From positions 124,001-188,000 of the forward strand of contig NC_091273.1 of NCBI RefSeq assembly GCF_042100115.1: a DNA stretch of 64,000 nucleotides, given 5' to 3'. Each line of letters opens with the position of its first letter. Positions within the stretch are counted from its first letter, which is position 1. The position numbers were made by a program, and so were the translations under genes. The stretch is from Alternaria dauci (Eukaryota; Ascomycota; Dothideomycetes; Pleosporales; Pleosporaceae). Below the pieces are notes generated by a model. That model had not been told where the DNA came from, did no database searches, and saw nothing but the letters and a program-made list of their open reading frames with translations. Positions 23,459 through 62,989 of this stretch are shown piece after piece.

Positions 23459-25679
23459 CCTGATTAGCTAATGCGCAGTCCTTCTACCGCAGGTATGACA
23501 TGCGGACAGTTACCAATGTGTCGGAACTGTCATTTATACATCGCTCGGGGTACGGGCTTGTCATACATCACGACGGGTAGTTATCTGTATGATTATTGAA
23601 CCCAGAAACCCATGTCTCCGGGTAGTCACGTCGCTTGCTAATGCTCGAATCCTCATCCCGATCTTATCGCGGGGAGCCTTGTTCAGGTACCGAGCATCGG
23701 AGTGACGTAGTTTGCCAAGACAACATATACCTGCCTCTTTGGTCGAACATAGCTGCAGATGGTGTCTCCAAGAGCTTCACGAGTGGTCCTTGGATCACTG
23801 CAGTCCTTGAGCAGACACTGCTCTTGTCACGGTGCGTTCGAAGGCGCGAGGACTATCTGGACCGTCTTGGATGTTGCAGTCAGAGCAATTCCATCCCAGT
23901 ATACATACATCAAGCAAGGACTGTGGGATCACCATTGCTCAACAGAGTCTCATCACATTGCCCTTCCTGCGCCTCTTCTATTTTCCTTCGTCCGTCGCCC
24001 CGCGTTCCGAGCGAAGGCAGGCGGACTGCTATGGACCTCCTCGCGTTCGGGGAGAAGTATCGAGCGCATGCGGCACCGTGTTCACCGACACTCAAGGCAG
24101 GATGATAACTGTGAATACGTGCGTAATAGTGTCTACCTCATTCTAGGCTCGAGGCATATGTGATTGCCAGATTGCCATAGCTGTTAGCCCTCGTCGCTGC
24201 CAACAGGATGTATCAGGATGCGCACCTACAGCCTGCCACGACGGCAGTGGGATTACCTGCAGCAGTGGATTACAGGTGCATGCGAAGTGAAACCTCAGCC
24301 GCCGGCGACAGTTGCTCGTGAAGGCGTGGTGGCACAGGCTGCGATGTTTGCCGATGATGTTGCGACGAGAGCCTGCAGACGGGGCTGCCAAGACCATGAC
24401 TAAGCGCAGGCTTAGCCGTCCGCCCTGCGCCTCAAAACAACTCCTAACCCTCACCTCACCCTCCCACGCCTCACAAGTGCCTCATCGCAAGCACTACTTC
24501 CGTCCCGACTCCGCACTAGCAGCCACAAACGGTACACTCAGGCCGGATCATGGTCGTGCCGGAGGCAGAAACTTCCCCAGATGCTGAACCATTGCTCGTG
24601 AAACCGACGATGCGCCACTAGAAAACTTTGATCTCAAAACGGAACACGGAAACTTCCTGTTGACCGCTCCCACGCTTCATGATATCGAAACACAGCCTTG
24701 ATCTGGCCTGTACGAGACCCTGATGACCCTGATCGTCACTGCAGAACAGATGTGCATTTGCTTGATGCCCTGGCGCACATCTTAGCTGTGACCGGCGTCG
24801 TCTAGTTTACAGCTCTACGGGATTGCGCCATGCATCTCAACATTGCTTATAGCGAAACTACATCACATAGCCCCTTCGAGTATACCATCAGCATGTCGGC
24901 CTGAGATGCGCTTCGGGAAGCTCTCGCCTGATGTACTCTCAACTTCCCCGGGACGGCGCGCATGAACCTCCACGACCTCAGCCGCTCTCCGTTTCATGGG
25001 ATCCTAGGGTTCATTTGTGTTCACTGCCAAGTTTGAAACCTCGGCTTCCGAATGCTTAGCTCGAGCTACACGTGCATTTGTCCACCGGTAAACTATGGAC
25101 GACTCGTGCGTACTGCGCGACGGCTACCACTGGTAAACGAAACTCTTCATCTCGCAACATCTTCACCGGTTCACTATGTCGCACTCTCAGTAAGCCTTGT
25201 TACAGCCTACAGCAAAATGGTCCGTTATGCTTGCACGATGAGAGCCAGATCAGCTCAAAGTGACCCTCCAGACACCGTCAGCCGGAGCTGTGGATTTTTC
25301 ATACATGTTTCTGGGGTTGATGTTGCCGCAACCGCGTTTCGTACATTTTCGCCTAGTGGCTCCTCGCCCTCATGCAACGTTTCTGCAAGACCACTACAAG
25401 TTTGAAACCTCATTCTACCAGGCTCTCACGTCTTGGCCAAACCGGAACACCTCGCCACCTTGGAACTAACCACAGTCGATGCGAGTCACGATGCCGAACG
25501 TCTTCTCTCGGTATCAGTCTGTTGTATAAAGACGACCGTCTTCGCAACCGAAGAAGGGCATCCAGCATCACAGGTTCCCAACCAACAACTACATTAATCC
25601 CTACTTCTCTTCTCTTCTACTTAATACCTCTTCACTTTATTACCTAATCTTCCTCTGACCGGTTCAGACAATAATCAAC
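23459..25679. other. intergenic, 2.2 kb without a supported gene
   Basis: Only short overlapping ORFs. Pyrimidine-rich sequence directly before 25680 is the likely leader of the gEgh16-type gene. Confidence 0.4.
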
Positions 25680-26852
25680 ATGTACTTCTCCAAGACCACG
25701 CTTGTTTCCTTCAGCCTTTTGGCTTCCTCCTCTCTCGTGGCTGGCCACGCTGCTATTATCGGCGCCACCGGTGACGCCGGCGGCAACGGCACCGCCATCG
25801 GCGTCGACCCCAACACTCCTCGTGACGGCACCGGCCGAAACCCATTCCAGCAAGACGCAACCCGCTTCAAGGGCGATGCCGCAGCCATCTGCGGCGAGAC
25901 GCTCGGCGGAGGCGACAACGACATCCAAGCCGGCACTGCACAGGTCATGGCCCTCAGCGGCGCCACTCTCCCCCAGGTCTCTGCTGGCGGTCAAATCATG
26001 ATGACAGTGCATCAAGTCAACTCCGACGGTGCTGGTCCTTATACCTGCATGGTCGACCCGACTGCCAACGGTACCAACTGGCAAGCTGCGACTGTCACCA
26101 CCAACCTTCCTGGTAACGACCGTGGCCGTAACCGCGATACTCAGATGCAGGATCTTCCTCTCACGGTTGCTATGCCCGCGGGTATGACTTGCACGGGTAC
26201 GGTCGCGGGCCAGACCAATGTCTGCATGGTTCGTTGCCAGAATCCTGCTCGTGCTGGTCCGTTTGGTGGCTGTGTTCCTGTGCAGATGGCGGGTGCTGCT
26301 GCGGCGGCCCCAGCTGCAAACGGCGCTGCTCCTGCGGCGGCGGCTCCAACTGCCAACGGTGCTACGGGTGCTACCACGGGCGCAACTGGCGCAACTGGTG
26401 TTAACACAGGCTCTGCCACTGGCCAGGTCGCAAACGGTGCGGCCCCTGCTGCGAACGCTGGCGGTGCTACTCAGCAAACGGGTTCTACTCAGCAGACTGG
26501 CGCCGGCGTGCAATCTGGTGCTACCCAGCAGACCGGAGCCGGCGTCCAATCTGGAGCTACCCAACAGACCGGTGCTAACCAGCAAACTGGCTCAACTCAG
26601 CAGACTGGCGCAACTCAGCAAACTGGCGCTGGCGTTCAATCCGGTGCTAACCAGCAAACTGGCGCTACTCAACAGACCGGAGCCGGTGTTCAATCTGGAG
26701 CAACTGGCGCAACCGGTGCTACCGCCGGCTCAAACACCGCTATCAACGGTCCCTCTGCTCGCAAGCGTGAGGCTGCCCGCAACCAGCCTGCCCTTACCAA
26801 CGACGACCAGGAGGAGGAGATTGATCTCCTTGGCGACGAGGTCGACAACTAA
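25680..26852 (+). CDS. gEgh16/Mas3-type secreted protein with QQTG-repeat tail, 390 aa
   Basis: A single exon of 390 residues. The signal peptide (MYFSKTTLVSFSLLASSSLVAG) probably ends just before His23, giving a mature start HAAIIGATGDAGG. The following region (CGETLGGGDNDIQAGTAQ, VHQVNSDGAGPYTCMVD, CTGTVAG...CMVRCQNPARAGPFGGC) matches the Egh16-like family of appressorium- and infection-associated secreted fungal proteins (gEgh16, Mas3; PF11327 as I know it). From about residue 205 there is an Ala/Gly/Thr-rich stretch, then about ten imperfect copies of QQTG(A/S)-type units, often as ATQQTGAGVQSG (26460-26720), and an acidic tail. The family is studied for plant infection in Magnaporthe and powdery mildew; the molecular activity is not settled. 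Repeat tails of this type vary between strains. Confidence 0.85.
   Translation: MYFSKTTLVSFSLLASSSLVAGHAAIIGATGDAGGNGTAIGVDPNTPRDGTGRNPFQQDATRFKGDAAAICGETLGGGDNDIQAGTAQVMALSGATLPQVSAGGQIMMTVHQVNSDGAGPYTCMVDPTANGTNWQAATVTTNLPGNDRGRNRDTQMQDLPLTVAMPAGMTCTGTVAGQTNVCMVRCQNPARAGPFGGCVPVQMAGAAAAAPAANGAAPAAAAPTANGATGATTGATGATGVNTGSATGQVANGAAPAANAGGATQQTGSTQQTGAGVQSGATQQTGAGVQSGATQQTGANQQTGSTQQTGATQQTGAGVQSGANQQTGATQQTGAGVQSGATGATGATAGSNTAINGPSARKREAARNQPALTNDDQEEEIDLLGDEVDN
26460..26720 (+). repeat. coding tandem repeat (QQTG units)
   Basis: Imperfect repeats of CAGCAAACTGG-like units within the gEgh16-type gene, encoding ATQQTGAGVQSG and shorter TQQTG/NQQTG forms. Copy-number change would keep the frame in several unit lengths. 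Confidence 0.75.
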
Positions 26853-28185: not shown

Positions 28186-28824
28186 CTAAGCATACACATC
28201 ATGGGATCTCATGCCGCTGGTCTCGATGGACTTTTGCCCCGAACCGGCTATTTCGCCCACCGCCTTCTCTTCCTCATCTTCCGAATCATATGCTTCCAAC
28301 GTGAACACCTCATCTGCGGGACCAGAGCGATTGTGACCCACTGATGACAGTCTTGTGTATTGCGTTTGGCGCTTGCGAACAATCACTGACCCAGCCACCA
28401 ACGCAGCTATTTCGATGCCACAAAGCACTCCGAAGATCGCAGTCGGTGTCGAGCCATGCCCTGCCAACTTCAAGCCAGTTACCATGGTGAACCACCCAAC
28501 GAAGAGTATAGAGAATCCCAGGCCTGCATGCGCGATGCCGACATATTCCGACGAGACCGTTTTCGAAGCGAAGCCGAGAACTTGCTGGATGAGTGCACCG
28601 CCCGCCACCAAAAGCCCCAGAAACTGGTGCTTCTGCGATATACCGCTGCTGTTGGACAGCCCGATGACTACTGCGGTGATAAGCACGAGTACGCCAAAGG
28701 ATTGGATCGACCAGTGCGAGAGGGAGCAAGGGCCTTTCTTGGTCCAGTATCGCATGATTCCGAGGGGAAAGATGATCGAAAGGGCGATACATGCTAGTAC
28801 GCCGTGCAGGAGCCAAATGTTCAT
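28186..28824 (-). CDS. cytochrome b561-type membrane protein, 212 aa
   Basis: A single exon with about five membrane spans. Four histidines at H7, H37, H66 and H99 sit at the ends of successive hydrophobic segments (LLHGVLACIALSIIFPLG, HWSIQSFGVLVLI, KHQFLGLLVAGGALI, IAHAGLGFSILFVGW), the pattern of the two-haem cytochrome b561 core. The usual extra N-terminal DOMON domain of fungal relatives is absent. The C-terminus is a cytoplasmic acidic tail (YDSEDEEEKA). It would carry electrons across a membrane. It is divergent from the RiPP precursor gene, with 571 bases between the starts, so it could supply reducing power or copper/iron reduction for the oxidases. That link is inference from position only. 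Confidence 0.75.
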   Translation of the reverse strand: MNIWLLHGVLACIALSIIFPLGIMRYWTKKGPCSLSHWSIQSFGVLVLITAVVIGLSNSSGISQKHQFLGLLVAGGALIQQVLGFASKTVSSEYVGIAHAGLGFSILFVGWFTMVTGLKLAGHGSTPTAIFGVLCGIEIAALVAGSVIVRKRQTQYTRLSSVGHNRSGPADEVFTLEAYDSEDEEEKAVGEIAGSGQKSIETSGMRSHDVYA

Positions 28825-29395
28825 TTCAGTAAGGGGTGGAGTTGTGAGCCCGGAGCTTGCCGTCGAAGTCGAGGTGGTGTGTAGATGCGCAGCTCATATT
28901 GGATTCTTACATGCTCACGGGTGTCTACAGACTGCAGAAGAACTGGAACATTGCTTCTTGACGGAGTTATCAACTGCAGGAACGGATCTGCTGTTTGGTC
29001 GCTATGTTCCACAGCCATACCACCCGGAAGACGGCTAATTCATGATTACCGTCGGAGGCTACCGCGTTCCTCTATCAATTTTCCGTTCCAGTTTCTACCG
29101 CAGGCGGATAGTCACCCCAGCCACACGTTTCCGCTCGTTGATACGGCTAAAGGTCACTTGGATGATTTTCCGCCCGCGTTTCGATGGGGATACAGCACAT
29201 GCACGGCTGATAGGAAAACGAAACAGTACCCTTTGCTGGAGCAGTACTCGCCATCCCGCCAACAACATATATATATACCCAGTGGCAGTGAAAACACAGC
29301 ATCCATCAGCGATACAGCAGTCTCCTCCTCCACAATCATCACCAACACCGCCATCTCCAAGACTAGACGTCTACTCCGCTACCCAACACATCACA
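28825..29395. promoter_or_regulatory. shared upstream region of cytochrome b561 and RiPP precursor genes
   Basis: Divergent promoter of 571 bases. A run ATATATATATAC at about 29266-29277 is the likely TATA region of the precursor gene, about 120 bases before its ATG. Confidence 0.4.
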
Positions 29396-29928
29396 ATGAA
29401 GGTCACTTCCATCGCCACCATCACCGCCCTCCTCGCTGCAGCCCACGCGCTGCCACAGCCAATCCAAGCCGTAAGTTCCACATCGCGCACTCTGCCCCCG
29501 CCAAGTGGTTCGTGTCCTAACAGCCATGGAAATGCTAGGTCGCCGAGCGCGACGCCGCACCCAACCCGGACCCCTGGTTCGCGTACAACACGATCCGACT
29601 CGCGGAGACTGACAAGGCAACCAATGCCGAAGTTGAGAAGAGGGACGCGCAGCCTGAGGCAGAGGCTAAGCCGTGGTTCGCATACAACACCATTCGCTTC
29701 GCTGAGCGAGAGGACGCAGCTGAGGCTGAGATGCAGAAGAGGGAGGCTGAGGTTAAACCGTGGTTTGCGTACAACACCATCAGGTTCGCTGAGCGGGAAG
29801 ACGCAACCAATGCCGAAGTTGAGAAGAGGGACGCGCAGCCTGAGGCAGAGGCTAAGCCGTGGTTCGCATACAACACCATTCGCTTCGCTGAGCGAGAGGA
29901 CGCAGCTGAGGCAGCCAAGAGCGAGTAG
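29396..29928 (+). CDS. dikaritin-like RiPP precursor with four Kex2-separated repeats, 154 aa
   Basis: Exon 1 (29396-29470) encodes a signal peptide, MKVTSIATITALLAAAHA, plus LPQPIQA. A 68-base intron (GTAAGT...TGCTAG) leads in phase 0 to exon 2 (29539-29928). Exon 2 holds four repeats with the constant core PWFAYNTIR(F/L)AE at 29572, 29671, 29758 and 29857. Lys-Arg Kex2 sites separate them (EKR at about 29635-29643, QKR at 29734-29742, EKR at 29821-29829). After each KR come dipeptides such as DA-QP-EA-EA or EA, as removed by Ste13-type dipeptidyl peptidases. A 110-base block, 29617-29726, is repeated exactly at 29803-29912. The layout matches UstA/PhomA-type precursors. Tyr and Trp in the core are targets for UstYa or tyrosinase oxidation. 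No cysteine, so not a classical alpha pheromone. Clustered with UstYa and tyrosinase genes. Confidence 0.82.
29617..29912 (+). repeat. exact 110-bp repeat inside the precursor gene
   Basis: 29617-29726 and 29803-29912 are identical, with an offset of 186 bases (two precursor repeats, 62 codons). This indicates a recent in-frame duplication of a two-repeat block. Confidence 0.8.
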
Positions 29929-30604
29929 ACTGCGGATGATGCGGAGGGCGGTATGCTACTGCTGCTGTATGGAATTCCTTGCAATAGATGGAAGGTTTAA
30001 GCTCAGCCGGCTTTAGCAGGGATCTGTATAAGGTGGAGTGTTGGCTTATTCGTAGTTGGACGTGTATCATGTAGGAAGATAGGGAGTGTGTTTGGCTTAT
30101 GGTGTTGCTGCGAGGTGGTGAGAGTGGTGGTTCGTTGATTGGTAGCTGAATTTGAGTTTTGACACTGTTTTGTTCTTTGTCGCTTTGTGATTGCCATAAC
30201 CGCCGAGCGGTCTGATACCACATCTCTTCATGCTGAGAAAATCATCTCGCTCCTTTGCGGTACACCATTGGTGACACTCTTGATTTACGCATATCTCTTG
30301 CTACCTGTAGATCTCATATGGCATGTTGAGTGCGATTTATCCCAGCTTGTGACGCGGAAGATTGCAGAGTCCAACGTGGCCTTCATCCCGTATCTGGATC
30401 AGCATTCACTTTTGCTATATAGGTCCTGCATCATCTACTTTCGCCTTTTGGCAATTTGATCCCATCTTCGCCATGACGATACTGCGACAACACATCACCA
30501 CCGTCAATCAGGCACTCACTCAATAGCCTAGCTACCTACATACGACACACTTCAAAAACATCCCAAAGTCAACAATATTTCTCTTGCAATTCCGATGCAC
30601 TATA
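29929..30604. other. convergent 3' region between precursor and UstYa gene
   Basis: Between two stop codons on opposite strands. No gene or repeat seen. Confidence 0.4.
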
Positions 30605-31458
30605 CTACTCATACTCCGGCAGCGCATGCCCATTCCCTTCCCCAAATCTGAACAAAGAATCTCGATTCGTACAAGTGTGTTTCTGCCCATTGGGAACCCC
30701 TGGCCATTTACTTTCCAATGGTATAAGAGTAGGGTCCATGAAGCACGCCAAACCCTGCCTCACAGCATCGACGCAATGCAACACATGATCCCAATCGAAG
30801 TCTCCGCCATGGTGCCACTCTATCGTACCGTTCAGATAATAAAGCGCATCCCGCAAAATATACTGTCAGACCATCAGCACCCTCTCACAAAACAGGATCG
30901 GAGCAATCTGACAAGGGAAGACGGACCGCGCAGTGTAGCTGGTGGTATCCAGCCATGAGGTAGTGCATTTTATCTTCACTGTCTTTGACAGGTGTACCGT
31001 TTCCTAGGTGGTGCTGTTTGGCAAAGTCTTTGGATAGCGCGACTGAACCGGCTTCTTTGGGTAACAGCCCTTCCCAACGATTGTCGCGGTAACGATGGCC
31101 ATCTGAGTCGCCCTCGAGACCGATCCAATCGTGGTCGAACGCTATTTGTGTGGTCGCAGGCGCGCCATCTATAAACTACTTATTAGATCTTCGTGCTCCA
31201 AGTGGCATTATTTAGCGACTTACAGTATGGCGTATGTTCTTCTCCGACTTGCGAAGATACGTGATGGTAACCCCAGTACCAGACGCTGTTTGTGACTAGC
31301 AACAAAGCTATTGATATCAGAGAGGGCGCCGAGCATCGACGAGATGTATTCCTTCGGCCATAAAATGGTATATCGAACTTGCTATTCTCGTTGGCGTCAT
31401 CTTGAAGCAGATTCTGCGCTTCGAGCTCAATGGTTGGCGATGAAGATTTCCCCATCAT
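30605..31458 (-). CDS. UstYa-family (DUF3328) oxidase, copy 1, 244 aa
   Basis: Three exons, 31224-31458, 30927-31168 and 30605-30862, are joined by introns of 55 (GTAAGT...TATAG) and 64 bases (GTCCGT...GACAG). They sum to 244 codons plus stop. The N-terminus MMGKSSSPTIELEAQ is followed by one membrane span, SLISIALLLVTNSVWYWGY, as in all UstYa proteins. Both signature motifs are present: HQLHC at H154-C158, and HVLHCVDAVRQ with H185, H188 and C189. They are separated by YILRDALYYLNGTIEW, and CFMDPTLIPLE follows the second motif. Family members are copper-type oxidases that cyclise or cross-link RiPP core peptides. Convergent with the precursor gene. Expected role: oxidation or macrocyclisation of the WFAYNTIR core. 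Confidence 0.88.
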
Positions 31459-31704
31459 GTCGGAAGAGTGACGAAAAAGGTCGCAGGAAGTTGTTGATAC
31501 ATGCCTTTCTACAAAACGCACTGGCGTCTCTTCTCCTCGACAAAAGTGTACAGATCTGCGCGTACTTTCAGGCACACGTCCCGGAGATGTTTCTAGTACC
31601 GAAGTCACCCCTTCGAGCAGCGGTCTTCGCAACATGACACTTGCACGAGTAATCAGAACGAGAAAGACAGGTTGTTGTACATTCAAGCTATATACCACTC
31701 CAGG

Positions 31705-32543
31705 CTACGACATCAAAGCACTTTGAGCGTCATCGACTCTATTCGCCTCCAGAAAGTTCTTCACAGCATCACAATCCTTGCACTGGTGCGGCGAACCTTG
31801 CCCGTCGGTAAGATACTTGGTTTCATTCCCTTCAACAACTTTCTTTGGCCACTCGATAGTCGTGTCGGCAGCGCAGATAATGCCGTGCCTCAGATAGTCA
31901 ATGCAGTGAAATATATGATCCCCTTCAGCCCAATGAGACTTGACGCCGATTCCATAATCGATTAAGACTGTCCTGAGAATCGCGAGGCAGTGGAGCTGGT
32001 GCGTCACGGATACTGCGTATATCTCTCCTCCTTGAGTTTCGTTCACGACAGGCTCACCAGGAGGTAAGCCATACTTGTCTGCGTTTGCTATCAACACGCG
32101 GCCGTTTCCGACTGGCATTAGCTCGTCCCAGAAATGGTCCGACTCCCTGTTGCCGACGGCGTACCGGAAGTCCTGATCCCATGACCTTTCTGTTAGAGGT
32201 GCTGTGGAGCTATTAGTTGTGTGCGAGACGACCATACGGACGACGAACCGTCTAGAACGAAGCTCTGACTTGCTGAACGTGGTTGGTTGCGGTTCTGATC
32301 AGTATAAAGCTCAGTCTGCTGGTGACCTACTGGTTGTACTTACGCATGGGTCGCGAACATTATTGCTCCAACAATGAGACCGAACCAGAAGCTTGTGACA
32401 GTACCAACCAACGGTATGTACAACGTTCGCAAACGTGACTGGCTCGAGACCTTGGTACGAAAGGCATTGGACTGCTCTTCCGCGGCATCCTCGTGCGTAG
32501 CAACAGCATGGTATGCAGATCGCAAAATTTGGGTCTTTGGCAT
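31705..32543 (-). CDS. UstYa-family (DUF3328) oxidase, copy 2, 255 aa
   Basis: Exons 32344-32543 and 31705-32272 are joined across a 71-base intron (GTAAGT...TTCAG) and encode 255 residues. A single N-terminal membrane span (IPLVGTVTSFWFGLIVGAIMF) precedes the catalytic region. The motifs are HQLHC around H158-C162 and HIFHCIDYLRHGI around H186-C190, with CAADTTIEW after the second. Several NxT/S sequons (NSS, NET) fit a lumenal or extracellular domain. It shares an upstream region of 394 bases with the divergent tyrosinase gene, suggesting co-regulation. Expected to act on the precursor peptides together with copy 1, as UstYa and UstYb do in ustiloxin biosynthesis. Confidence 0.88.
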
Positions 32544-32937
32544 CTTGTGGAGGTATTTGGAAAATGTGCGAACGAGGTAATGCTAGTGAAGCTTGTGGTG
32601 TGATGTTTTGGGAGAGGAAGTAGGCAATCGGCCCTTTACCGTGGAGTCAACCGCTGCCATCTCGCCAATCGAGGTAGTCGGATAGAGAAACTTACTACGG
32701 CAAATATCGGTGTTATCGGGTCTGAAAAATATTTTATCAACTTCCTGTCGCATGTATCGTAGACAGACTCCGCTTAAATCTTTCGCGATATACTGTTAGA
32801 CCGCGAAATTTGCCGAAAATGGGAATTCCATACACTGTCTTAGCGGCTTTGCGGTTATTAGTCGCAAAGCAAGCCATATCGTCCTACTGAACACAGCGAC
32901 ACGACACTGTTCTAGATCGCGTCCGTTTGATGCGAAT
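32544..32937. promoter_or_regulatory. bidirectional promoter, UstYa copy 2 / tyrosinase
   Basis: Contains the inverted repeat TTTCGCG (32781-32787) ... CGCGAAA (32802-32808), 14 bases apart, plus several CGG/CCG triplets. These are the kind of elements bound by fungal zinc-cluster regulators. Binding is inference. Confidence 0.4.
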
Positions 32938-34060
32938 ATGTATTCCACGCTTGCACAACGACTGCTGGCTGTCTTCGTTTTCATGTCCTCCCTGCTCTCT
33001 CTCTTCACAATTTCTCCGAGCATCGGCACTTCCCGAATCACCCGCGTTCAATGCAACAAGCCGGTGCGTCGGCGAGAGTGGCGTACGCTAAGTAAAGAGG
33101 AAAGAAGAGGCTTCATCGATGCTGTGGTGTGCATGACAGAGACACCGTCGGACAGAGAGACTGAAGGTTCTTTGTACGATGACTTCTCGCTCGTGCATAT
33201 GATTGCTGGCTCACCTAGTAAAACGCCTCATGCGCTGCTTTGTGTTCGACTGCTGACTTCGTAAGATCATGCTGCTGCGCCATTCTTCCCATGGCATAGG
33301 ATATACCTGCATCTGTTCGAAGAGCAACTCAAGAAACGTTGCGGCTATCAGGGCTCCTTACCGTGAGTTTAGCGCTGGACGATGAGGAGATATAGTTCTA
33401 AAACTAACATCTTAGCTACTGGGACTGGACGCTCGACAATCCAGACATCCACAACGCCCCAGTATGGGATAATTTCACCGGATTTGGTGGCAATGGTGGC
33501 GGCGTCACTGGAACAGCGCTGCCAAACGCGACTTGCGTTTCGGACGGACCTCTCAGCAGCATGAAGCCTCTATACTTCAATGCAAAACGTATGCCGCACT
33601 GTCTCTCCCGGGCATTCGTACATCTGGATGCTGAAGGCGTGTATGCGCAGGCTCTGGGACCAGAGGCTTGGTTGAAAATTTTGAACCAAACGGACTACGA
33701 TTCCTTCCGTCGCGACATGGATGACACCGTACACAACACCATCCATGGTGCAGTTGGCGGAGACTTTCTTGACATCAACTCTTCTAATGGTATGACGACA
33801 CATTTCTGTCAAGCTAAGCACTACTGACAGCTTCAATAGATCCAATCTTCTACCTCCACCACGCACAACTTGACAGGCTGTGGTGGATATGGCAGAAGCA
33901 GCGGACACACAGAGCTTTTGAGTACCGTGGTCTACGATCCGAGACGAGCAACATGAGCGCAAGTCTCGATGATGAACTCAACTTCATGTATCTCCACCGT
34001 GGTGTGCCAGTATCGGATGCCATGAGTACGGAAAGTGGGATGCTTTGCTACCAGTATTAA
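32938..34060 (+). CDS. tyrosinase (UstQ-like), 323 aa
   Basis: Four exons, 32938-33217, 33266-33362, 33416-33790 and 33841-34060, give 323 codons plus stop. Introns are 48, 53 and 50 bases with good donors and branch sites. The N-terminus (LLAVFVFMSSLLSLFTI) is a signal peptide or anchor. The type-3 copper site is complete: CuA histidines H87 (SLVHM), H95 (NHAAAPFFPWHR) and H104, and CuB H232 and H236 (VHNTIHG) with the HH of DPIFYLHHAQLDRLWW (H257/H258). YWDW and the Arg-rich start (RREWRTLSKEER) are typical of the short fungal tyrosinases found in RiPP clusters such as UstQ. It would hydroxylate or oxidise Tyr in the peptide core. Sequons (NFT, NAT, NQT, NSS) fit the secretory route. Confidence 0.88.
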
Positions 34061-34469
34061 TGCTTCGAGATCACCGGCGTGGCTCGAGACCAAAGTTTAG
34101 TAGCACTTATCGCTGTGTGCATAAACAAATCGCATTCCTGGCGATGTCGCTTGCTGCGGGTTTGTTTGTGAATTTGTGCAAATCGTCTTCGTGTGATGAG
34201 ATGGTGGTCGTGGTAGCAGAAGGGTGAAGTGAAGTTGGCGGCTAGGATTTGTTGGGGACAGGGTTGGGCGGGGTCGCCCCACCTCCAGCCCCCAAATTAC
34301 CGGCACGTTTCGGGACAAACTGCTGTCACCCTGAACTTCACACCAGCGCAACAAAAGGCGAGGCATTGGTATCACGATACGCTCTTCGTCGCGCAATGTT
34401 TGATTCTACGCTGATGCAATTCGCTACTGACGGTCATCGCGACGATGGCTATTACGTTCATACTTTCAG
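34061..34469. other. convergent 3' region, tyrosinase/acyltransferase
   Basis: No gene or repeat recognised. Confidence 0.35.
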
Positions 34470-35972
34470 CTACGCCTCAGTTCTATCCACACCGCCTACC
34501 TCTTGCATACTCAAAAGTGGCTCGTCTGGCGATTCTTCTTTCCAAGAGAGACACCATCGCTCAAAGCTCTTGCCCACAGCTACCGACGGCTGATCCATAT
34601 AGCGTTGGAACAGGCCCGCGCAAAAAAGATTGATGATAATAGTAGGAGTCATGAACACTATGTACGCGACGCACATCTTCCTCCGATCATCCCATTCCGA
34701 GAAAGTAGCACCGCCATCAAGTCCAACCGCAAACACGATACGAATCCTCAGCGGCTCCAGCCAGGTACGCCACGGAATGTGGCAGAGGTATAGGCCAAAG
34801 GAGATGCGCCCAAGGTACTGGAACGGTCGCGTCTCTAGAAGACCTTTGAAGCAAGGCGTCTCCCCCACTCCAACTAGAGACGCCATGGCGGCGAGGCACA
34901 AAATGTACTCTTCCGCCTGGCGGTCTTTGTACAATCCGAGCCAGAACACTGGCATAGTAATCCAGTCAAAGCCAGGACGGGATTCAAGGGACTTGAGGAC
35001 TTCCGTGCCGTCGTCGTCGACGGCTACCTTGAGATGACCCCCTGGAAGCCCAGAAAGGTAAAAGCCCAACGGGAACAAGAGACTGAACATCGCGCTTCGT
35101 AGCCAGGGAAGATCTTTTCTCTTTTTGTGTGCTTCCCTGCGCGCTGCATGTTGTTGGCGGTCAAGCTGGTAGTCAGCAAACGCCACGCCCATGACGAACT
35201 GAGCAGATACCCAGTCATCTTTTGCGAAGCTCTGCATGACTATGCACAGCATTAAAATCCTCCGCATATTCGTATTGCGCACGTACGACACAAGGAGGAT
35301 GGTGGTAAAGACGCAAAGTGATCCGTAGTACTCCAGCGGAATAGTCCACGAGATGCCGCCGTCATATCGATTGTTCAAAGCCTCTGCTCGAGCAGGGTAC
35401 CGTAGCGGCAGCATCATATCGAGGATACTACCACACCAAGTTTTCAGCTCTTGGAGAAAAGTAGGAGCAAATTCGTATCCCTCGTTTGGCTTCGGGACCC
35501 CCAAATACCGGCAGACCAGCATCAAACCAAAAGTCTCAATAACTATCGGCATATACAGCCGGATTCCTCGGCGCAATAAAGCCGATGAAAGCGTGGCTAG
35601 CAGTTCTTCTTGACGCTTCTGATGCATCAGACGCAATGCTCGGTGGGACAGGACGTATCCCGAGATTCCAAAGAACAAGCATACAGCTGCGCCTCCGCCA
35701 TTGTAGAAAGTGCGGATCATGGGGAGGTAGTACCAATCGCGACGCTGATCCGGCAGGCTACCCCAAGCAGTGGTAGTGTCGATCCATCGCCAGGCGTAGT
35801 GATAGATGAAGACTTCGAAAGCGGCGAGACCACGCAAACCGTCTAGCCATGCCGTGCTTTGGAGCTCTTGATTGGTCTTTGGATAGTTGAAAGCGATGCG
35901 GAGAATACTGCTGAAGCCGAGCTGGTTGAAGGTTGACCAGGAACGACGGACGCGGACAGTAAGGGATTCCAT
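34470..35972 (-). CDS. membrane O-acyltransferase (acyltransferase 3 family), 500 aa
   Basis: A single exon of 500 residues from ATG at 35972 (an upstream in-frame region has no ATG). The family mark LDGLRGLAAFEVFIYH lies near residue 43, followed by about ten hydrophobic spans, including NGGGAAVCLFFGISGYVLSHRAL and PFQYLGRISFGLYLCHIPW near the C-terminus. Both are characteristic of acyltransferase-3 (OafA/YrhL-like) proteins. They move acyl groups onto sugars, peptides or small molecules. Its place between the tyrosinase and a UstYa-like gene suggests acylation of the peptide product. That is inference: the enzyme is not standard in published dikaritin clusters I know. The upstream region (36105-36165) has many CGG/CCG triplets. 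Confidence 0.82.
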   Translation of the reverse strand: MESLTVRVRRSWSTFNQLGFSSILRIAFNYPKTNQELQSTAWLDGLRGLAAFEVFIYHYAWRWIDTTTAWGSLPDQRRDWYYLPMIRTFYNGGGAAVCLFFGISGYVLSHRALRLMHQKRQEELLATLSSALLRRGIRLYMPIVIETFGLMLVCRYLGVPKPNEGYEFAPTFLQELKTWCGSILDMMLPLRYPARAEALNNRYDGGISWTIPLEYYGSLCVFTTILLVSYVRNTNMRRILMLCIVMQSFAKDDWVSAQFVMGVAFADYQLDRQQHAARREAHKKRKDLPWLRSAMFSLLFPLGFYLSGLPGGHLKVAVDDDGTEVLKSLESRPGFDWITMPVFWLGLYKDRQAEEYILCLAAMASLVGVGETPCFKGLLETRPFQYLGRISFGLYLCHIPWRTWLEPLRIRIVFAVGLDGGATFSEWDDRRKMCVAYIVFMTPTIIINLFCAGLFQRYMDQPSVAVGKSFERWCLSWKEESPDEPLLSMQEVGGVDRTEA

Positions 35973-36274
35973 ATGGTAGCGGCGTCTCTGATAGGAGGGA
36001 GAAGCCACGTCGGTACACGACCACAACTGTCGTAACCTTGCCTATATTGTATCGTTGTCGCATGCTCTGTGATACTGGCGATTTGCCTATCTTCCGCGCT
36101 CAATTTACCGTGGTTTACCGGTTACCGGTGGCGGACCGATTCCGTTGCAACAACTCCGGAACATTAAGAGCGAACATCACACCGAGGCGCACCTATGTTT
36201 TTTGATAAACAGATTAACGTTTTGGAAATTACTAGCTATACAACAGGCTTTGTACAACGATGCGCAAGGTCAAG
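35973..36274. promoter_or_regulatory. acyltransferase upstream region with CGG/CCG motifs
   Basis: At 36105-36165 several ACCGG, CCGGT, CGGACCG and CTCCGG units occur close together, a plausible zinc-cluster regulator target. Confidence 0.35.
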
Positions 36275-36925
36275 CTAATAACAAACTTTGGTATGGGAAG
36301 TGACGCGGATGGAGCGGTTCGTCAAAGGCCCATTGTAGCTGAAGACAAATTCTTCCAGGGCCTCGAGCGAGTGTTGAAGATGAAACAGATTGAGGTCTCC
36401 GATGCATTCGTGATTTCCCGTGGCGGTCGCGTCGACGTACCTCCTGAGAACGGCCACGCTGTGAGCAATATGATAGAAGTGGTCTACCTCAATCCATTGC
36501 CATGCGTCTTTGTCTGTAGCTTCGGCTTCTGCAAGAGCAACTGGGTTAACATGTTTGCCAGATTCGTAAAATTTTCGCAGTCCAGGGTAGCGTTCGCGGA
36601 ACCAATTTTGTGTGCGTTGTGTCTGCGGAAGCATGTTCTGTTTGGGCACGAAAGTGCTGTCTTCGATCCGGAAGGTGAATTGGGACATGTCATGTTGCTC
36701 GACCCACGATGTTGCGTTGTGAGATCTTAGTTCTTCCTGGCGGGGTGGTCCGCTCCCATAGTATTCGTGGGGAGCCGGCGTCTCGTCGTGATGATGGTGA
36801 GGGTGTCCGGTCGTGTCAGGGACTGTGATCAGGGAAATCCAAGCCCACAGAAGGCATGCCGCGAGCGTCGTGAACGCAACAGCCGCGCCGCATCGAGACC
36901 ATATGGGTGTTGAGAAGGCGCCCAT
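36275..36925 (-). CDS. divergent UstYa-like protein with HxxHS motifs, 216 aa
   Basis: A single exon of 216 residues from ATG at 36925. Topology is as in UstYa: a short N-terminus, then one membrane span (GAAVAFTTLAACLLWAWISLI), then a soluble domain. The first signature, normally HxxHC followed by LxxLR, is here HIAHSVAVLRR (H152, H155, S156). The second is HLQHSLEALEEF (H182, H185, S186). Thus both conserved cysteines are serine while all four histidines are kept. A HPHHHHDE run precedes the domain. It may be a UstYa paralogue with altered activity, as seen for helper members of UstYa pairs, or an inactive partner. Assignment rests on topology and motif spacing, so it is less sure than copies 1 and 2. 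Confidence 0.65.
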   Translation of the reverse strand: MGAFSTPIWSRCGAAVAFTTLAACLLWAWISLITVPDTTGHPHHHHDETPAPHEYYGSGPPRQEELRSHNATSWVEQHDMSQFTFRIEDSTFVPKQNMLPQTQRTQNWFRERYPGLRKFYESGKHVNPVALAEAEATDKDAWQWIEVDHFYHIAHSVAVLRRYVDATATGNHECIGDLNLFHLQHSLEALEEFVFSYNGPLTNRSIRVTSHTKVCY

Positions 36926-37718
36926 GATCCAATATTGAGCCTGTTCTTTCAATCTTGATATTATTCGGCTATGATGCACAGTCGACTAACAAGGCGTCGA
37001 GAAAGAGTAAAAATATTGCTGCGAATGCTTCTTTGACAAGGCGTGTGTAGGTGTATAGACTGATACGAGGGTTGAATGATAGAATGCGCCATGTTGATTG
37101 GAGAGATATACATGTGCAGACGGTAAAATTCCTAATTGCCGGATTGCGGGCATAGAAGATCAGACGCGTCGAGGTCAGGCCCATCCCCTACGTGTCGAAA
37201 GGTCTGGTGTTCCTTACCAAGGCCCAAAAGGCCGACCGCCGTCATGAGATCAGCAGCTGTATTTGATCCGAAGCTTGCCACCCAAAGGTTTTACAACAGC
37301 CGTACACGGATCTCGGTCACAGCTCATCAATTCGCTTCTCTTGGAATCATGATGCATCGCTGACATATTCTCTCTCAGCTCGTGATTGATGGTACTGGGC
37401 GACTTCTTCATACGAATTCATTCAATGGCTCCATGTCGTCCCTCTTCCGCTCCCAACACTTCAACGCCGAGCCGCTGTCCCATCGTACCGAAAAGCTTCA
37501 GCAACAACTTCATTGAACTTCTCAAAGGGAAGGCTCGAAGCCATGGAAACACGAGCAAAGAGCCCTAGCGCTAGGCTCATGTACTGTCGGAGAGCTAGTT
37601 TCTCGGGTGCCGTGCCAAAGAGGCAAGCGGCACTACAGAATGCTATTGTGCAGACCTTGATTATCCTCCTAGACCGAGATTAGCCTGTCGTGAGCTCTTC
37701 GTCGCGCGGAAACCATGC
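36926..37718. other. intergenic between UstYa-like gene and regulator
   Basis: Upstream region of the UstYa-like gene and 3' flank of the regulator. No gene supported. Confidence 0.4.
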
Positions 37719-39450
37719 TCACCAGTCGTCAACCATCTTGAGAGTATCCATATGCCCAATGAGACGAAGAATCTCTTGTGAAAGTTGTGCCAACATCTCT
37801 TTGGACCGTTTTGAGGGTTCTGTCTCTACAGGATTCGATAGACGTTCGGCATGGATGTAGAGGAACAGCTCGTAGTGGTCGATATGTACGGAGAGCTCAT
37901 GCGCTGTCGATAACTTGCAGTCGGAGCTACGTCCAGCCAAAGCCTCTTGCTTCCAGGCCTCCAACAGCGATTCAAGCTCTCCTGTCTCGTATTGCTGTTG
38001 ATCTCGCTGTAAATGACATGAAACGGAGCGTGATGCCCAGCCGTGCATGTGCTGTATCGCTTGCGAGCTTAGCCGTGCGAAGAGACATTGCCGGATAAAG
38101 CAGTTTTCCATGTGCTCCGTCGTGCGATCAAGGCCGAGAGGTGTATGATCAATGCATTCATCTGAAATGGCTGAAAACTGCCCATTGCGCACGCTGTGAC
38201 TTTTCTCTACCATGTAGAAAAGCCAAAACCCAGCTTTAAGATGAATTTCATCTTCCTTGTCAAAGCTTAGGGCGCTTATGCTGCTACTGCTATCGAGCTT
38301 GAGTATCTGGACGCATTCTACACATCGTGACAGTAGTTTCTGCACGCTCGTGGTATACCATTGTATAGCGTATAGAAGTAGGGTCAGCGCTGCCTTGAAT
38401 CTAGTCAAAACATCGTCATCCCCTGAAGAAGTCTCCAAAACGTAGACGGCGTATTCAAAAAACCTCTCAGGAGGAAGGCTCCGCTTCTCACGGGTCTCAA
38501 GATCGCAGCACTGTCGATGCTTGGCTCCAGTGGCGATTGCCCCATACACCAGCGTGGTCGACGCACGTTTCGCCGTCCGATCCGAAAGGACGTCTTGAAG
38601 AAAGCGGCGGAGTTGTTCTTTCTTGATGAAGCTAACTCCCAAGTATGGGTGCCTGCAAAACAGCGCAAGGCTCTCATGTAACCCGTCCAAATCGCCATCT
38701 TGCGGCAAGTCTGATGCCGGAAGGTATCCTGGAGATTGTGGTGTACTGAACACACAACGAAGGATGCCCAAGAGCGGATTCTCTAATGTCGTACGAAAGG
38801 ATCTACTATCCGCATGGTTCGCGACCATTCGTGAAACAACAGACGCGTTGGCATAATCGGGTCTGTTGAACTCTCGAAAGAGACCCTTCACACAAGTCAC
38901 TCCATGTTTATGGGCGTTGCGCGCGCTCTCAAACAAGTTACCGTCGATCGGCCCAGGAGTGAAAAGGGCGTCGGTCATTCTGCCGGTCGCATCCACTGCC
39001 AACGCTTCTTGCACGTCTAAGTCGCCAAGCAGATCGAACCCCGCGCTGTTCGTTTCGCATTGCTCATCGATGTTGCGGAAGAAGTCCGGACTCCAAACAC
39101 CGTCAAGAAATGTGTTCGTGGTGTCGTCCTGCCTTTCCAGTGAATTGTCGGTATCCTGGAGACTGATGGGTGACATGAAAGAAGAACATAGACTTTGTCC
39201 TTTAAGAGATGAGCTTTCACTGGCAAGACGGATACTGCGCGTACTTACGACGTCTTCCGCGCTTCTTTCCGGGAGGATAGTAGCACGTAATCTTGCTGGC
39301 CTGGCATTTTCGACACGTTGGTTTACCTCCGTCACCTGCTGGATATGAGTACGAGACAGCTGTTGTATCGATGATGTACATACACTTGGTCTTTTGTTGT
39401 TTGCAGCTCTCACACGCGCCAGGCCGGCGCTTATACATCCGTGTCTCCAT
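37719..39450 (-). CDS. Zn2Cys6 transcription factor, likely cluster regulator, 544 aa
   Basis: Exons 39384-39450, 39249-39335 and 37719-39199 are joined by 48- and 49-base introns and encode 544 residues. The first intron splits the zinc cluster. After splicing it reads CESCKQQKTKC-x6-CRKCQASKITC, i.e. C-x2-C-x6-C-x6-C-x2-C-x6-C, a perfect Zn2Cys6 motif near residue 10. A basic linker (PPGKKRGRRR) follows. The remainder is a helical regulatory region with a C-terminal domain similar in style to AflR-type regulators (LSVHIDHYELFLYI, LAQLSQEILRLIGHMD). The gene ends the cluster on its right side and probably controls the precursor and oxidase genes through CGG-type sites. The target genes are not proved. 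Confidence 0.88.
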
Positions 39451-49924: not shown

Positions 49925-51084
49925 TCACCGCTGCAGCGCGACCTTGGCCTTGATCCGACGAACCACATCCGCATACTTCCCATAATTAGGAAAATCCTCC
50001 CCCTGACAATCCCTCTTAACCTCCAGCGCCTTGATTGCCGCCACCTCCGCCATCCTAAGATCGCCCTCCATCTCGCAAACCAGAGCGATATCCAGGTACC
50101 TAGTTCAAGTCAGCAACACGTCCATATGTGAGCGAACAGCTCCAACCTACACAGCAGCCAGCCTCGCACTATAATCTCCCTCAGCCCTATGCAACGCCGC
50201 CAGCTCCAACAACTTCTTCACCACAAAATCGCGCTGCTGACTCCCCTGCCGCAACGCCGCGCCCCTAAGCACCGCCGTCTCCCTCTCCAACTCAAGTAGC
50301 CTAAACCTGCGCTCCGCGCTCTTAGCTCCAAAACTCTCTTCATCTTCTTCATCATCCGTACACGCAGGACAATCACAGACAAACCCATAGTGCCTCAGCT
50401 CATACGCACGCAGCCCCTTATCATGCATCATATCGACATAACTCAGCGTGATTTCAGCGCCAGCAGGGACCTAGATGGCTACATCAGCGTCTATCCCGCA
50501 CAGTAAGTGAACATATACCGCCCGGCCGCATACCGGATTCATGACATGGATATTTTCTTTGCCCGTAGAGTGGTTGAACGAGAAACACGCATTCGGATTA
50601 CACGAGTGATTGAACCGACTCGCGTGCACGAATACGGCGGCCCCGTCCCCCATTTCCATGCAGTTTGTTTGGAAGATACTAATCAGACTCGCGGCCGAGC
50701 CTGTTCGCGCGCCGTGCTGCTCGGCGATGCGAGCGCGTTCCCTGGGGGCGACCGAGTCGTGGATGCGGGTAGGCCAGTTTTTGGGGTCTTGGCCGTGGCT
50801 CGAGTGGAGAGTGTGGTAGAGGGCTTGTTGGGCGGGGGTTAGCTCCGCGAATGCTTTTTCGACGTCGGAGAGCATGTATTCGGCGATGGGGACGACAAGC
50901 AGGGGCGCTTCGGAGAGGATGCGGGTGCCGCGGGAGAGGTCGCGGACGGCGAAGCAGCCATAGCCCTTGTTGGGGATGGCGCGTATGGTGTAGTATGGGT
51001 TGTCTGCTGGGGTTGTGTCAGTTGGTGAATACGGTGGTGGTGGTTGCACTTACCTGGAGCAGAAGGGGTCGATGTCGTTGCCAT
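49925..51084 (-). CDS. SET-domain protein, 337 aa
   Basis: Four exons, 51054-51084, 50519-51006, 50151-50470 and 49925-50099, with introns of 47, 48 and 51 bases, give 337 residues. The SET domain begins YYTIRAIPNKGYGCFAVRDL and has the S-adenosylmethionine/active-site motif SRFNHSCNPNA near residue 145, then GAEITLSYVD and a post-SET zinc-binding FVCDCPACTDD. The insertion between the two SET halves (LISIFQTNCMEMGDG) is of the SMYD/SET-5 style. Probably a protein lysine methyltransferase in nucleus or cytosol; substrate unknown. The C-terminal part resembles a short TPR-like helical region. The start codon follows from the tiny first exon that is needed for frame. Confidence 0.8.
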
Positions 51085-57906: not shown

Positions 57907-58110
57907 GTCAATGTTGTCGGTTCCGGGTGTCTAGGGTGAAGACTTTAACTTTTAGGCTGAGAGAAGTTGCTAACGAACGAATGTGGTGTTTGGCTTTAAG
58001 AGGTATTTGTCTTACACAATCAACCGTTCCCTAAAGCTCAAAACTAATGATTATCGCGACGCAGTAGGCCTCCCAGGAGCCTGAAAAAGCGGCTTTACGC
58101 TCTCTCGCTC
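57907..58110. promoter_or_regulatory. upstream region of the 793-aa gene and edge of the transposon block
   Basis: Normal base composition to about 58027, then a transposon-like head (58028-58105) shared with 27908-27985. Confidence 0.4.
58028..58105 (+). repeat. dispersed repeat fragment, copy B
   Basis: Counterpart of 27908-27985. It directly adjoins the AT-rich block and could be its 5' end. An ATG at 58046-58048 lies in the shared part and a TAG follows six codons later. Confidence 0.5.
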
Positions 58111-61100: not shown

Positions 61101-62446
61101 TATATTAATAGTAAGCTATATAAGAATAGTATCTATATTAATTATATTTATAGTAGCGCCTTAAATACCTATTTATTCTACTATAAGTACCTAATTATCT
61201 TTTAGATAGCCTCTTCTTTTCTTCTTTATAAATTTTACTAATTTAAACTTTTTCTAGGTAATATTCCTATTTATTATAGTATTACTTATATTAGTTAACT
61301 CTCCTCTATCCTTTCCTCTAATATCCTTAATACTCCTACTTTACCTCTCCTTACTTATACTAGCGCTAGTAAGGCTATAATACCTACTAAGAAACCCCTA
61401 TTTACTTACTCTTCCTTTAGCTAGGTTAGTAAGAAGTCTACTACTAGCTATAGTCTTTATTTAAGCTAGTTAAATAAGGGTAAGGCTAGTGACTTTAAGC
61501 CTAAGCTTAGCTTAGATACTAATAGTATTACCTCTAAGGATTTAGCTCTTATAAAGCTATCTTTAGTTAGGGAGTTAGGTAATAACTAAGTTATTACTCT
61601 ATCTAAGCTACCTAAGAAGGCTACTTATAAGATACTTACTCCTCTGAAGCGCACTACTACTTAAAAGCTAGTAATACTATTACTAATAAAGAAGAAGGCT
61701 CCTTATAAGAAGTCTTTTACTCTAGCTCCTCTAGCTTCTTCTAAGGCTTATTTAGTCTAGCGCTCTCCTTATTAGCTAACTATTAAGGCTCTAAAGGAGT
61801 AGGTTAAAAAGCGTAAGAAGGCCTCTTATTATAAGTATCTTCCTAGTAGCTAATATCTTATTAATATTAGGAGTCTTTATTATTATATAGAGTTAATTAA
61901 TTCTACTCTTTAGCCTAAAGTTCTTATTATTAAGCCTATTACTATAGTTAAGGACGCCTCTATTACTAAGTCTAGTAGTAATAGTGCTAGTTTCTAGTCT
62001 TTATTATATACTTCTCTAGGTTTTAATAGTAAGTAGTTAGCTAGTTATATTACTACTATCCTAATAGGCTTTTAGCTATAGTTCTTATAGAAATCTATAT
62101 CTAACTATCTTATTTTACTTCTTATTTATTTTAAAGATATTAGTATTACTTCTAATCTTCTTTTTTTATAAAGTATTTATACTACTCCCTCCCTTATTTA
62201 AGAAATTAAAGGTCCCTTCTTCTTTAAAATCTAGTTTCTAAAGAGTGTTTAGAATATAGAGTAGACTAAAGGATAAAGTAATTCTATATTTATTATAGGT
62301 TTTTAACTTTAGAGATTAGTAATAGCTACTTAATAGATATTTATTCCTAAGCTATAGTTCTATCTTTCTTAATTCTAGTTCCTAAACTTCCTAGGGTAGT
62401 TCTTAGAACTCTAGATTTATTTCTTTCTATTCTAAGTACGTGTAAA

Positions 62447-62464
62447 GGTTATCCTTAGATAACC
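62447..62464. repeat. 7-bp inverted repeat with 4-base loop
   Basis: GGTTATC CTTA GATAACC. It lies at the end of the first RIP-mutated frame and directly before a less depleted stretch (62465-62870), which may be a terminal repeat or intergenic part of the element. Confidence 0.5.
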
Positions 62465-62989
62465 TAAGAGTTAGTTCTTAGGAACGAGTAAGTGCGATAG
62501 ACGGGGTTAGTGTAATAGCACGATTAGAAGATTAATGTAATATTACGAGGGGGTTATATAAGAATAAAGTAGAATCCTTAGATTAACTACTAGAGTCTTA
62601 TACGAAGTTAAATATAATAAACTATAGGGGTTTATTACCTAAGCTATATACTTAATAAGCGTTATACTTATATACGAGCGTGTAGGTGCTTATAGATAAG
62701 TATCTACTTATAGGCTAGCGTCTAACTACTTACTAATAAGTAGTTACATAACTATAGTATAGTACTATACTATAATCCTTTAACTATACTACTTAATCCT
62801 TTAAAGTACTTACGCTTACCCCTAACTCCTCTTAGGCGTAGATTATAACACTATCCTCCTCCTATAGGGATTTATCCTTAAATTATATAATTAATTTATA
62901 GTTTCTATTAATAACTAAGGCTTACCCTACGTTATAAGTAAGGTAGTTGTTATATCCTCTTCCTCCTATTAACGTCGCTTACGCCTTAG

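What the first reader, a model, noticed from the sequence alone, without database searches (positions are those of the whole stretch)
28186..39450. Compact dikaritin-type RiPP cluster with a new core sequence
In 11 kb the sequence shows a Kex2-repeat precursor, two canonical UstYa oxidases, a third UstYa-like gene, a tyrosinase, a membrane acyltransferase, a Zn2Cys6 regulator and a flanking b561 gene. These are hallmark parts of ustiloxin/phomopsin-type RiPP clusters (established knowledge: UstA, UstYa/UstYb, UstQ, UstR). The core WFAYNTIR does not match the cores I know (YAIG, YVIG, YVIPID, FYYTGY), and no peptidase, P450, methyltransferase or transporter is present. It therefore looks like a new, minimal family member with an added acyltransferase.
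Basis: partly seen in the sequence, partly recalled or inferred. Interest (0 to 1): 0.95.

Follow-up and report, generated by a model that had tools for sequence, protein, structure and literature searches.

The report
Fungal peptide cluster with pheromone-style precursor
A fungal chromosome carries a compact set of genes that most likely makes a small chemically modified peptide of the ustiloxin/phomopsin kind, but its precursor is laid out for trimming in the way fungal mating pheromones are, which has been reported as missing from the known members of that kind.

Summary
Window 28186-39450 has a four-repeat Kex2-type precursor (154 aa, core WFAYNTIR), two UstYa-family genes with paired HXXHC motifs, a tyrosinase, an Acyl_transf_3 protein and a Zn2Cys6 regulator. 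A third gene resembles UstYa by motif only; the b561 call is weak. The core looks selected: across the four copies 5 of 8 codon columns vary, all without changing the amino acid. No precursor relative was found in the protein database or elsewhere in the genome, and no held paper text matches the core. The class is well known, so a new core alone is ordinary. This genome has a second, plainer precursor-UstYa pair and another UstYa locus with an acyltransferase. Ste13 would make Trp the N-terminus and could stand in for a cluster peptidase. The third UstYa-like gene has HxxHS at both motif positions, kept in a 74-75% identical relative. New variant of a known kind; product undetermined. No related fungal genome was available, so synteny and expression are untested.

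The parts
29396..29928 (+). Precursor gene (exons 29396-29470 and 29539-29928; 154 aa; signal-like start, four repeats)
   Evidence: Gene model; codon table; no homologue in database at E <= 10 nor elsewhere in genome. TATATATATA at 29268, 128 bp upstream of the ATG.
29575..29598 (+). Core WFAYNTIR, copy 1 (followed by LAE)
29674..29697 (+). Core WFAYNTIR, copy 2 (followed by FAE)
29761..29784 (+). Core WFAYNTIR, copy 3 (followed by FAE)
29860..29883 (+). Core WFAYNTIR, copy 4 (followed by FAE)
29551..29574 (+). Ste13-type ladder DA-AP-NP-DP before copy 1 (after a monobasic ER)
   Evidence: Sequence; counts
29644..29673 (+). Ladder DA-QP-EA-EA-KP before copy 2 (after KR)
   Evidence: Sequence; counts
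29743..29760 (+). Ladder EA-EV-KP before copy 3 (after KR; EV breaks it)
   Evidence: Sequence; counts
29830..29859 (+). Ladder DA-QP-EA-EA-KP before copy 4 (after KR)
   Evidence: Sequence; counts
30605..31458 (-). UstYa-family gene 2 (244 aa, three exons; HQLHC and HVLHC)
   Evidence: PF11807 61.1 bits; motifs
31705..32543 (-). UstYa-family gene 1 (255 aa, two exons; HQLHC and HIFHC; one hydrophobic segment 41-59)
   Evidence: PF11807 94.1 bits; motifs; hydropathy
32938..34060 (+). Tyrosinase (323 aa, four exons)
   Evidence: PF00264 144.2 bits; relatives in PDB are hemocyanins, catechol oxidases and tyrosinases
34470..35972 (-). Acyl_transf_3 membrane acyltransferase (500 aa, one exon); membership of the cluster likely, not shown
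   Evidence: PF01757 74.3 bits; a paralogue sits beside UstYa genes on C4
36275..36925 (-). UstYa-like protein with HIAHS and HLQHS in place of the two HXXHC (216 aa)
   Evidence: No Pfam match; motif; relative P0001
37719..39450 (-). Zn2Cys6 regulator (544 aa, three exons)
   Evidence: PF00172 34.6 bits; best paralogue about 17 kb from a UstYa match on C6
28186..28824 (-). b561-like membrane protein sharing a 571-bp divergent upstream stretch with the precursor; membership unsure
   Evidence: PF03188 18.5 bits, below cut-off 23; five hydrophobic segments, His at 7, 37, 66, 99

Best explanation
The locus is a dikaritin-type ribosomal peptide pathway. The precursor enters the secretory route and is cut by Kex2 at KR; Kex1 removes the basic ends; a Ste13-type dipeptidyl aminopeptidase strips the X-Ala/X-Pro ladder so that Trp becomes the N-terminus of each WFAYNTIR(F/L)AE... 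peptide. The two UstYa-family oxidases, with the tyrosinase, then oxidise the Trp/Tyr/Ile-containing core, most likely into a side-chain cross-linked or dehydrogenated peptide. The Acyl_transf_3 protein may acylate it, the HxxHS UstYa-like protein may be a partner without the usual metal site, and the Zn2Cys6 protein may regulate the set. Shown here: genes, families, repeats, ladder, synonymous-only change in the core. [quoted passage not shown]
For: Precursor with 4 repeats and KR sites; 5 of 8 core columns vary, none changes the residue, against 7 of 8 columns before and 7 of 11 after it; two UstYa genes and a tyrosinase within 4.2 kb of it; 16 of 17 ladder dipeptides X-A/X-P, 1 of 17 in the other register; Kex2-type and DPPIV/Ste13-type genes in the genome; a second precursor-UstYa pair in the same genome; acyltransferase beside UstYa again on C4. 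In print: UstQ, UstYa, UstYb give the first cyclic ustiloxin intermediate (PMC6514808, passages).
Against: No transcript, peptide or synteny data. Homologue searches for precursor and UstYa 1 found nothing. No methyltransferase, transporter or peptidase found. The ladder test is post hoc, the copies are related, copy 3 has EV and copy 1 follows ER, not KR. A Ste13 ladder is in print a mark of linear pheromones (PMC6339444, passages). The path-averaged substitution count in the core is 20 synonymous and 2 non-synonymous, the 2 arising from Arg codon paths. UstYa 2 has no hydrophobic segment over the threshold used, nor has the precursor's signal-like start. No shared promoter motif stood out.
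Confidence: 0.72

Rival explanations
1. The precursor gives a linear secreted signal peptide (pheromone- or hormone-like) trimmed by Kex2, Kex1 and Ste13; the UstYa and tyrosinase genes beside it act on something else.
For: The ladder; Ascomycota Ste13 signatures are generally those of alpha pheromones (PMC6339444, passages); 10 other UstYa loci of this genome scanned here mostly have no repeat precursor, so UstYa genes do other work too; one sits by a frame that I read as an NRPS.
Against: The core has neither the two Cys nor the PYG(L/M)P(I/V)G of Dothideomycete alpha pheromones (the class of this fungus is not established). Almost no annotated pheromone precursor has DUF3328 neighbours (3 exceptions, PMC7329392, abstract). 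UstYa genes and tyrosinase are the next genes to the precursor.
Confidence: 0.15
2. The working unit is narrower: precursor, two UstYa genes and tyrosinase; acyltransferase, HxxHS protein, regulator and b561 are neighbours with other jobs. This does not exclude the main reading.
For: b561 and HxxHS proteins fail Pfam cut-offs; no shared promoter motif stood out: the best of the spaced CGG-type motifs tried was 6 found against 1.2 expected, in 3 of 6 stretches.
Against: Paralogue of the acyltransferase within 3 kb of a UstYa locus on C4 (random placement about 0.010) and of the regulator within 20 kb of one on C6 (about 0.013), distances chosen after the fact.
Confidence: 0.3
3. A silent or decaying locus, or wrong gene models.
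For: No expression data; window starts 124 kb from a contig end and an AT-rich block (27-30% GC) begins near 58 kb.
Against: Nine introns of 48-71 nt, all GT...AG, restore open frames with intact domains; synonymous-only change in the core; the C7 precursor has the same signal-exon/intron/repeat-exon layout.
Confidence: 0.06

Closest known systems
Ustiloxin B cluster (ustA, ustYa, ustYb, ustQ, ustR; Aspergillus flavus)
   Same: Kex2-repeat precursor, two UstYa proteins, tyrosinase, C6 regulator (PMC6514808 and PMC4740483, passages)
   Different: Core YAIG repeated 16 times; 15-gene cluster with methyltransferase and flavin monooxygenases; precursor reported without Ste13 signature; no acyltransferase that I know of (recalled)
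Phomopsin cluster (phomA, phomQ)
   Same: Repeats with KR, tyrosinase needed, several UstYa-type genes, zinc-finger regulator (PMC6514808, passage)
   Different: Eight repeats, core YVIP(ID), five DUF3328 genes, methyltransferase and S41 peptidase
Asperipin-2a cluster (aprA, aprY, aprT, aprR)
   Same: Small cluster, aromatic core, UstYa-type oxidase, no peptidase
   Different: Core FYYTGY; one UstYa-type gene; transporter and reductase; no tyrosinase among its four genes
Ascomycete alpha-pheromone precursors
   Same: Kex2 site followed by X-A/X-P dipeptides (PMC6339444 and PMC9769878, passages)
   Different: Linear, unmodified peptides; known Dothideomycete core motifs absent here; UstYa neighbours almost never
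Second precursor-UstYa pair of the same genome, C7:307.5-310.6 kb
   Same: Signal exon, intron right after it, Kex2 repeats, a PF11807 gene and a UstYa-like frame beside it
   Different: Two repeats with ATYIDLF, no ladder; none of the 35 listed tyrosinase matches is near it

Membership tests
Dikaritin cluster (2021 sense: DUF3328/UstYa is the class-defining enzyme; PMC12048977, passage) | UstYa-family protein with two HXXHC motifs | tested here: met
   Two genes, PF11807 above cut-off, both motifs
Dikaritin cluster | Repeated cores separated by Kex2 sites | tested here: met
   Four cores, three internal KR
Dikaritin cluster | Signal peptide on the precursor | tested here: inconclusive
   Start MKVTSIATITALLAAAHA looks like one by eye; no 19-residue stretch over the hydropathy threshold; no signal predictor at hand
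Dikaritin cluster (2016 list of five, as told in PMC12048977, passage) | Tyrosinase | tested here: met
   PF00264 144.2 bits
Dikaritin cluster (2016 list) | Methyltransferase | tested here: not met
   None among the 8 gene models; only a SET domain at 50471-51049, 11 kb off
Dikaritin cluster (2016 list) | Transporter or peptidase | tested here: not met
   None among the 8 gene models or 30 further ORFs, a selection. Asperipin-2a and Ustilaginoidea clusters also lack a peptidase (passage)
Dikaritin cluster | Oxidatively modified peptide product | not testable with these tools
   Needs LC-MS/MS
Ascomycete alpha pheromone | Ste13 X-A/X-P dipeptides after the Kex2 site | tested here: met
   16 of 17 dipeptides
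Ascomycete alpha pheromone | Known core motif (two Cys, or PYG(L/M)P(I/V)G in Dothideomycetes) | tested here: not met
   Core has no Cys and no such motif (motifs)
Ascomycete alpha pheromone | No UstYa/DUF3328 gene nearby | tested here: not met
   Two next door
UstYa family (gene 36275-36925) | PF11807 match | tested here: not met
   No Pfam family at E <= 1; HHalign 0.3-2.1%; positive control, leave-one-out of a divergent member, 76%
UstYa family (gene 36275-36925) | Two HXXHC motifs | tested here: not met
   HIAHS and HLQHS
UstYa family (gene 36275-36925) | Two HxxH motifs in register and at family spacing | tested here: met
   30 residues apart against 28 and 31; the looser paired pattern with C or S is in 6 of 712 ORFs, the other 5 UstYa-type; 1 (strict) and 8 (loose) of 200,000 shuffles. 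Letting S stand for C was decided after seeing the protein
Cytochrome b561 (gene 28186-28824) | PF03188 above cut-off | tested here: not met
   18.5 bits against 23; segments and His pattern agree with the fold (pattern recalled)

The most novel reading that the evidence does not exclude
A UstYa-modified pheromone-type peptide: a precursor matured by the general Kex2/Kex1/Ste13 route with no cluster peptidase, whose N-terminal Trp is exposed by Ste13 and then oxidatively linked by two UstYa enzymes and a tyrosinase with the help of an HxxHS UstYa-like partner without the motif cysteines. That would join the two halves of the Kex2-repeat world, linear signals and cyclic products, in one pathway.
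Probability: 0.25. Interest if true: 0.75.

Novelty: new variant of a known kind. Interest (0 to 1): 0.5.

Why it matters
For ustiloxin, the proteases that remove the sequences on both sides of the core were stated to be still unknown (PMC6514808, passage). A dikaritin-type precursor with a Ste13 ladder gives a concrete candidate for the N-terminal side, testable by one gene deletion and mass spectrometry. It also questions the use of the Ste13 signature to sort such precursors into linear hormones and cyclic products. A paired Ser-for-Cys UstYa-like protein kept in a relative would help to ask what the Cys of HXXHC does. A Trp-led core is of chemical interest, although Trp in UstYa-linked precursors is not rare (20.5%, PMC7329392).

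Tried and rejected
Precursor homologues in the 5.8-billion-protein database: none at E <= 10 among 995 candidates. UstYa 1 homologues there: none at E <= 0.001 among 554 candidates, although the family is large, so that database seems poor in such intron-bearing fungal genes and the absence says little. Solved structures for UstYa 1: one chance match at E 0.73. Shared promoter motif: none convincing over six intergenic stretches. NCBIfam: nothing for three proteins. Reading the HxxHS protein as an ordinary UstYa was dropped after Pfam and HHalign failed. One HHalign value (100% for the C4/C7 UstYa-like pair) is circular, since one of the two was also in the target, and is not used. The window tyrosinase has no close paralogue: its best whole-genome matches are on C1 (35-36%), not the one in the C2:4.21-Mb UstYa locus, while among fetched loci that one ranks first by a little (30%); I draw nothing from it. 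The L036 repeat frame is low complexity and was discarded. My first, stricter repeat scan missed the C7 precursor; the relaxed one found it. Paper searches; no held text has WFAYN or AYNTIR, and supplements, where precursor tables sit, could not be searched. I did not survey the 1647 Ascomycota precursors with DUF3328 neighbours of PMC7329392 for ladders, so 'not seen before' rests on the statements quoted, not on a count.
Full report
What is there. The window lies in a 34.9-Mb genome held in 10 contigs (G000, C2:124001-188000). No tool names the organism; that it is a filamentous ascomycete is my inference. Gene models were made by joining exons at nine GT...AG introns of 48-71 nt: precursor 29396-29928 (+; intron just after the signal-like exon), UstYa 2 30605-31458 (-), UstYa 1 31705-32543 (-), tyrosinase 32938-34060 (+), Acyl_transf_3 34470-35972 (-), UstYa-like 36275-36925 (-), Zn2Cys6 regulator 37719-39450 (-), b561-like 28186-28824 (-). 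Pfam supports UstYa 1 and 2, tyrosinase, acyltransferase and regulator above cut-off; b561 is below cut-off and the UstYa-like protein has no match. One donor, GTCCGT in UstYa 2, is unusual.

The precursor. The 154-aa protein has four WFAYNTIR copies (window 29575, 29674, 29761, 29860) and three internal KR sites. Codon comparison: of the eight core columns 3 are invariant, 5 vary synonymously and 0 change the residue; of the eight columns before, 7 change it; of the eleven after, 7 do. The path-averaged count over pairs is 20 synonymous and 2 non-synonymous changes in the core, the 2 coming from paths between Arg codons. Copies 2 and 4 have the same codons there, so about three copies are independent. 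The conserved block runs P-WFAYNTIR-(L/F)AE. This points to selection on the peptide. No relative was found in the protein database or elsewhere in the genome.

The ladder. From the cut site (KR; in copy 1 the monobasic ER) to Trp the spacers read DA-AP-NP-DP, DA-QP-EA-EA-KP, EA-EV-KP, DA-QP-EA-EA-KP. 16 of 17 dipeptides end in Ala or Pro; in the other register 1 of 17 does. With each spacer shuffled, 0 of 200,000 rounds reach 16 for the four copies, and a share of 6.5e-5 reach 11 of 12 for the three distinct ones. The test was made after seeing the pattern and the copies are related. In print (passages of PMC6339444): the signature is XA or XP after the Kex2 dipeptide, generally confined in Ascomycota to alpha pheromones, and absent from the precursors of the toxic cyclic tetrapeptides and of epichloecyclins. 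PMC9769878 (passages) reports that Pichia removed such dipeptides from a mushroom precursor and that peptides consistent with this were found in mushrooms. PMC7329392 (passage) says that 17 of 76 precursors homologous to putative Basidiomycota pheromones do have DUF3328 neighbours, so ladder-type precursors near UstYa genes may not be without precedent. The genome has one P_proprotein match (Kex2 type) and three DPPIV_N matches (Ste13 type).

Comparison inside the genome. PF11807 gives 18 matches, a lower bound: two in this cluster and 16 in twelve other loci. The relaxed repeat scan (264 kb) found one more true precursor: C7:310279-310583, MHKSLFLLIALVGLSAAAAS, then after an intron two KR-ATYIDLF repeats, about 2 kb from a PF11807 gene, with a UstYa-like frame (HVAHC, HIRHC; no Pfam match) between them. 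It has no ladder. So 2 of 11 UstYa loci looked at, window included, have a repeat precursor. At C4:336-343 kb a P450, a UstYa-like frame with both HXXHC, an Acyl_transf_3 gene and a UstYa gene lie together; at C2:4.21 Mb UstYa genes and a tyrosinase do; the scan found no repeat precursor at either. The best regulator paralogue (C6:2.628-2.630 Mb) lies about 17 kb from a UstYa match, with a 2059-aa frame between them that I read as an NRPS without a domain search. Random placement gives the acyltransferase co-location (1 of 5 other loci within 3 kb) 0.010 and the regulator one (within 20 kb) 0.013; the distances were chosen after the fact.

The UstYa-like protein 36275-36925. Pfam and HHalign fail, while leave-one-out tests find three known members at 76-96%. 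Yet HIAHSVAVLRR and HLQHSLEAL stand where UstYa 1 has HQLHCLAILRT and HIFHCIDYL, 30 residues apart against 28 and 31 in UstYa 1 and 2. The paired pattern with Cys or Ser occurs in 6 of 712 ORFs of the window and the 20 stretches, the other five UstYa-type. Its one database relative, P0001 (74-75% identical, one 1257-base contig, source unnamed), has Ser at both places. It has no paralogue found in the genome. I read it as a UstYa derivative that has lost both motif cysteines; catalyst, partner or something else is open.

Literature setting. Dikaritins are RiPPs from Kex2-repeat precursors cyclised by UstYa homologues, five reported as of 2022 (PMC10512285, passages). UstQ, UstYa and UstYb give the first cyclic ustiloxin intermediate; asperipin-2a comes from a four-gene cluster with one UstYa homologue (PMC6514808, passages). 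Of 7878 precursors 1758 have DUF3328 neighbours and 341 tyrosinase genes were counted near precursors; 65.6% of the repeats with DUF3328 neighbours contain Tyr and 20.5% Trp (PMC7329392, abstract, passages, one section whole and one in part). KexB is needed for ustiloxin B, and expressing ustR turned its cluster on (PMC4740483, passages). A UstYa cluster with GNAT acetyltransferases, another family than Acyl_transf_3, is described from lichens (PMC12048977, abstract, passages and one section). PMC10885120 gave only reference entries.

Verdict. A real, intact-looking dikaritin-type locus: new member by its core, new variant by the Ste13 ladder and the HxxHS protein. The enzymatic steps and the product are inference. 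Relative genomes, transcripts and mass spectra are needed.

Noticed in passing
G000 C7:307.5-310.6 kb (L022, L023): Second repeat precursor of this genome (two KR-ATYIDLF repeats) with a UstYa gene and a UstYa-like frame beside it.
   Followed up: partly
G000 C4:336-343 kb (L033): P450, Acyl_transf_3, a UstYa gene and a UstYa-like frame with both HXXHC motifs lie together; no repeat precursor found.
   Followed up: partly
G000 C2:4212-4217 kb (L020, L021): UstYa genes next to a tyrosinase with no repeat precursor found by the scan.
   Followed up: partly
G000 C6:2628-2648 kb (L039): Paralogue of the regulator, a 2059-aa frame that reads like an NRPS, and a UstYa match within 20 kb.
   Followed up: no
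window 25659-26852 (+): Egh16-like protein (PF11327, E 7.8e-62, named a virulence factor family) with a repetitive Gln/Thr/Gly tail of 36- and 72-bp DNA repeats.
   Followed up: no
window 28186-28824 (-): b561-like protein divergent from the precursor; a role in supplying electrons to the oxidases would be a guess. One weak paralogue in the genome, on C3.
   Followed up: partly
window 58000-64000: AT-rich block, 27-30% G+C against about 50% elsewhere, gene-poor by ORF length.
   Followed up: no
window 55525-57930 (-): 801-aa open frame without a Pfam match.
   Followed up: no
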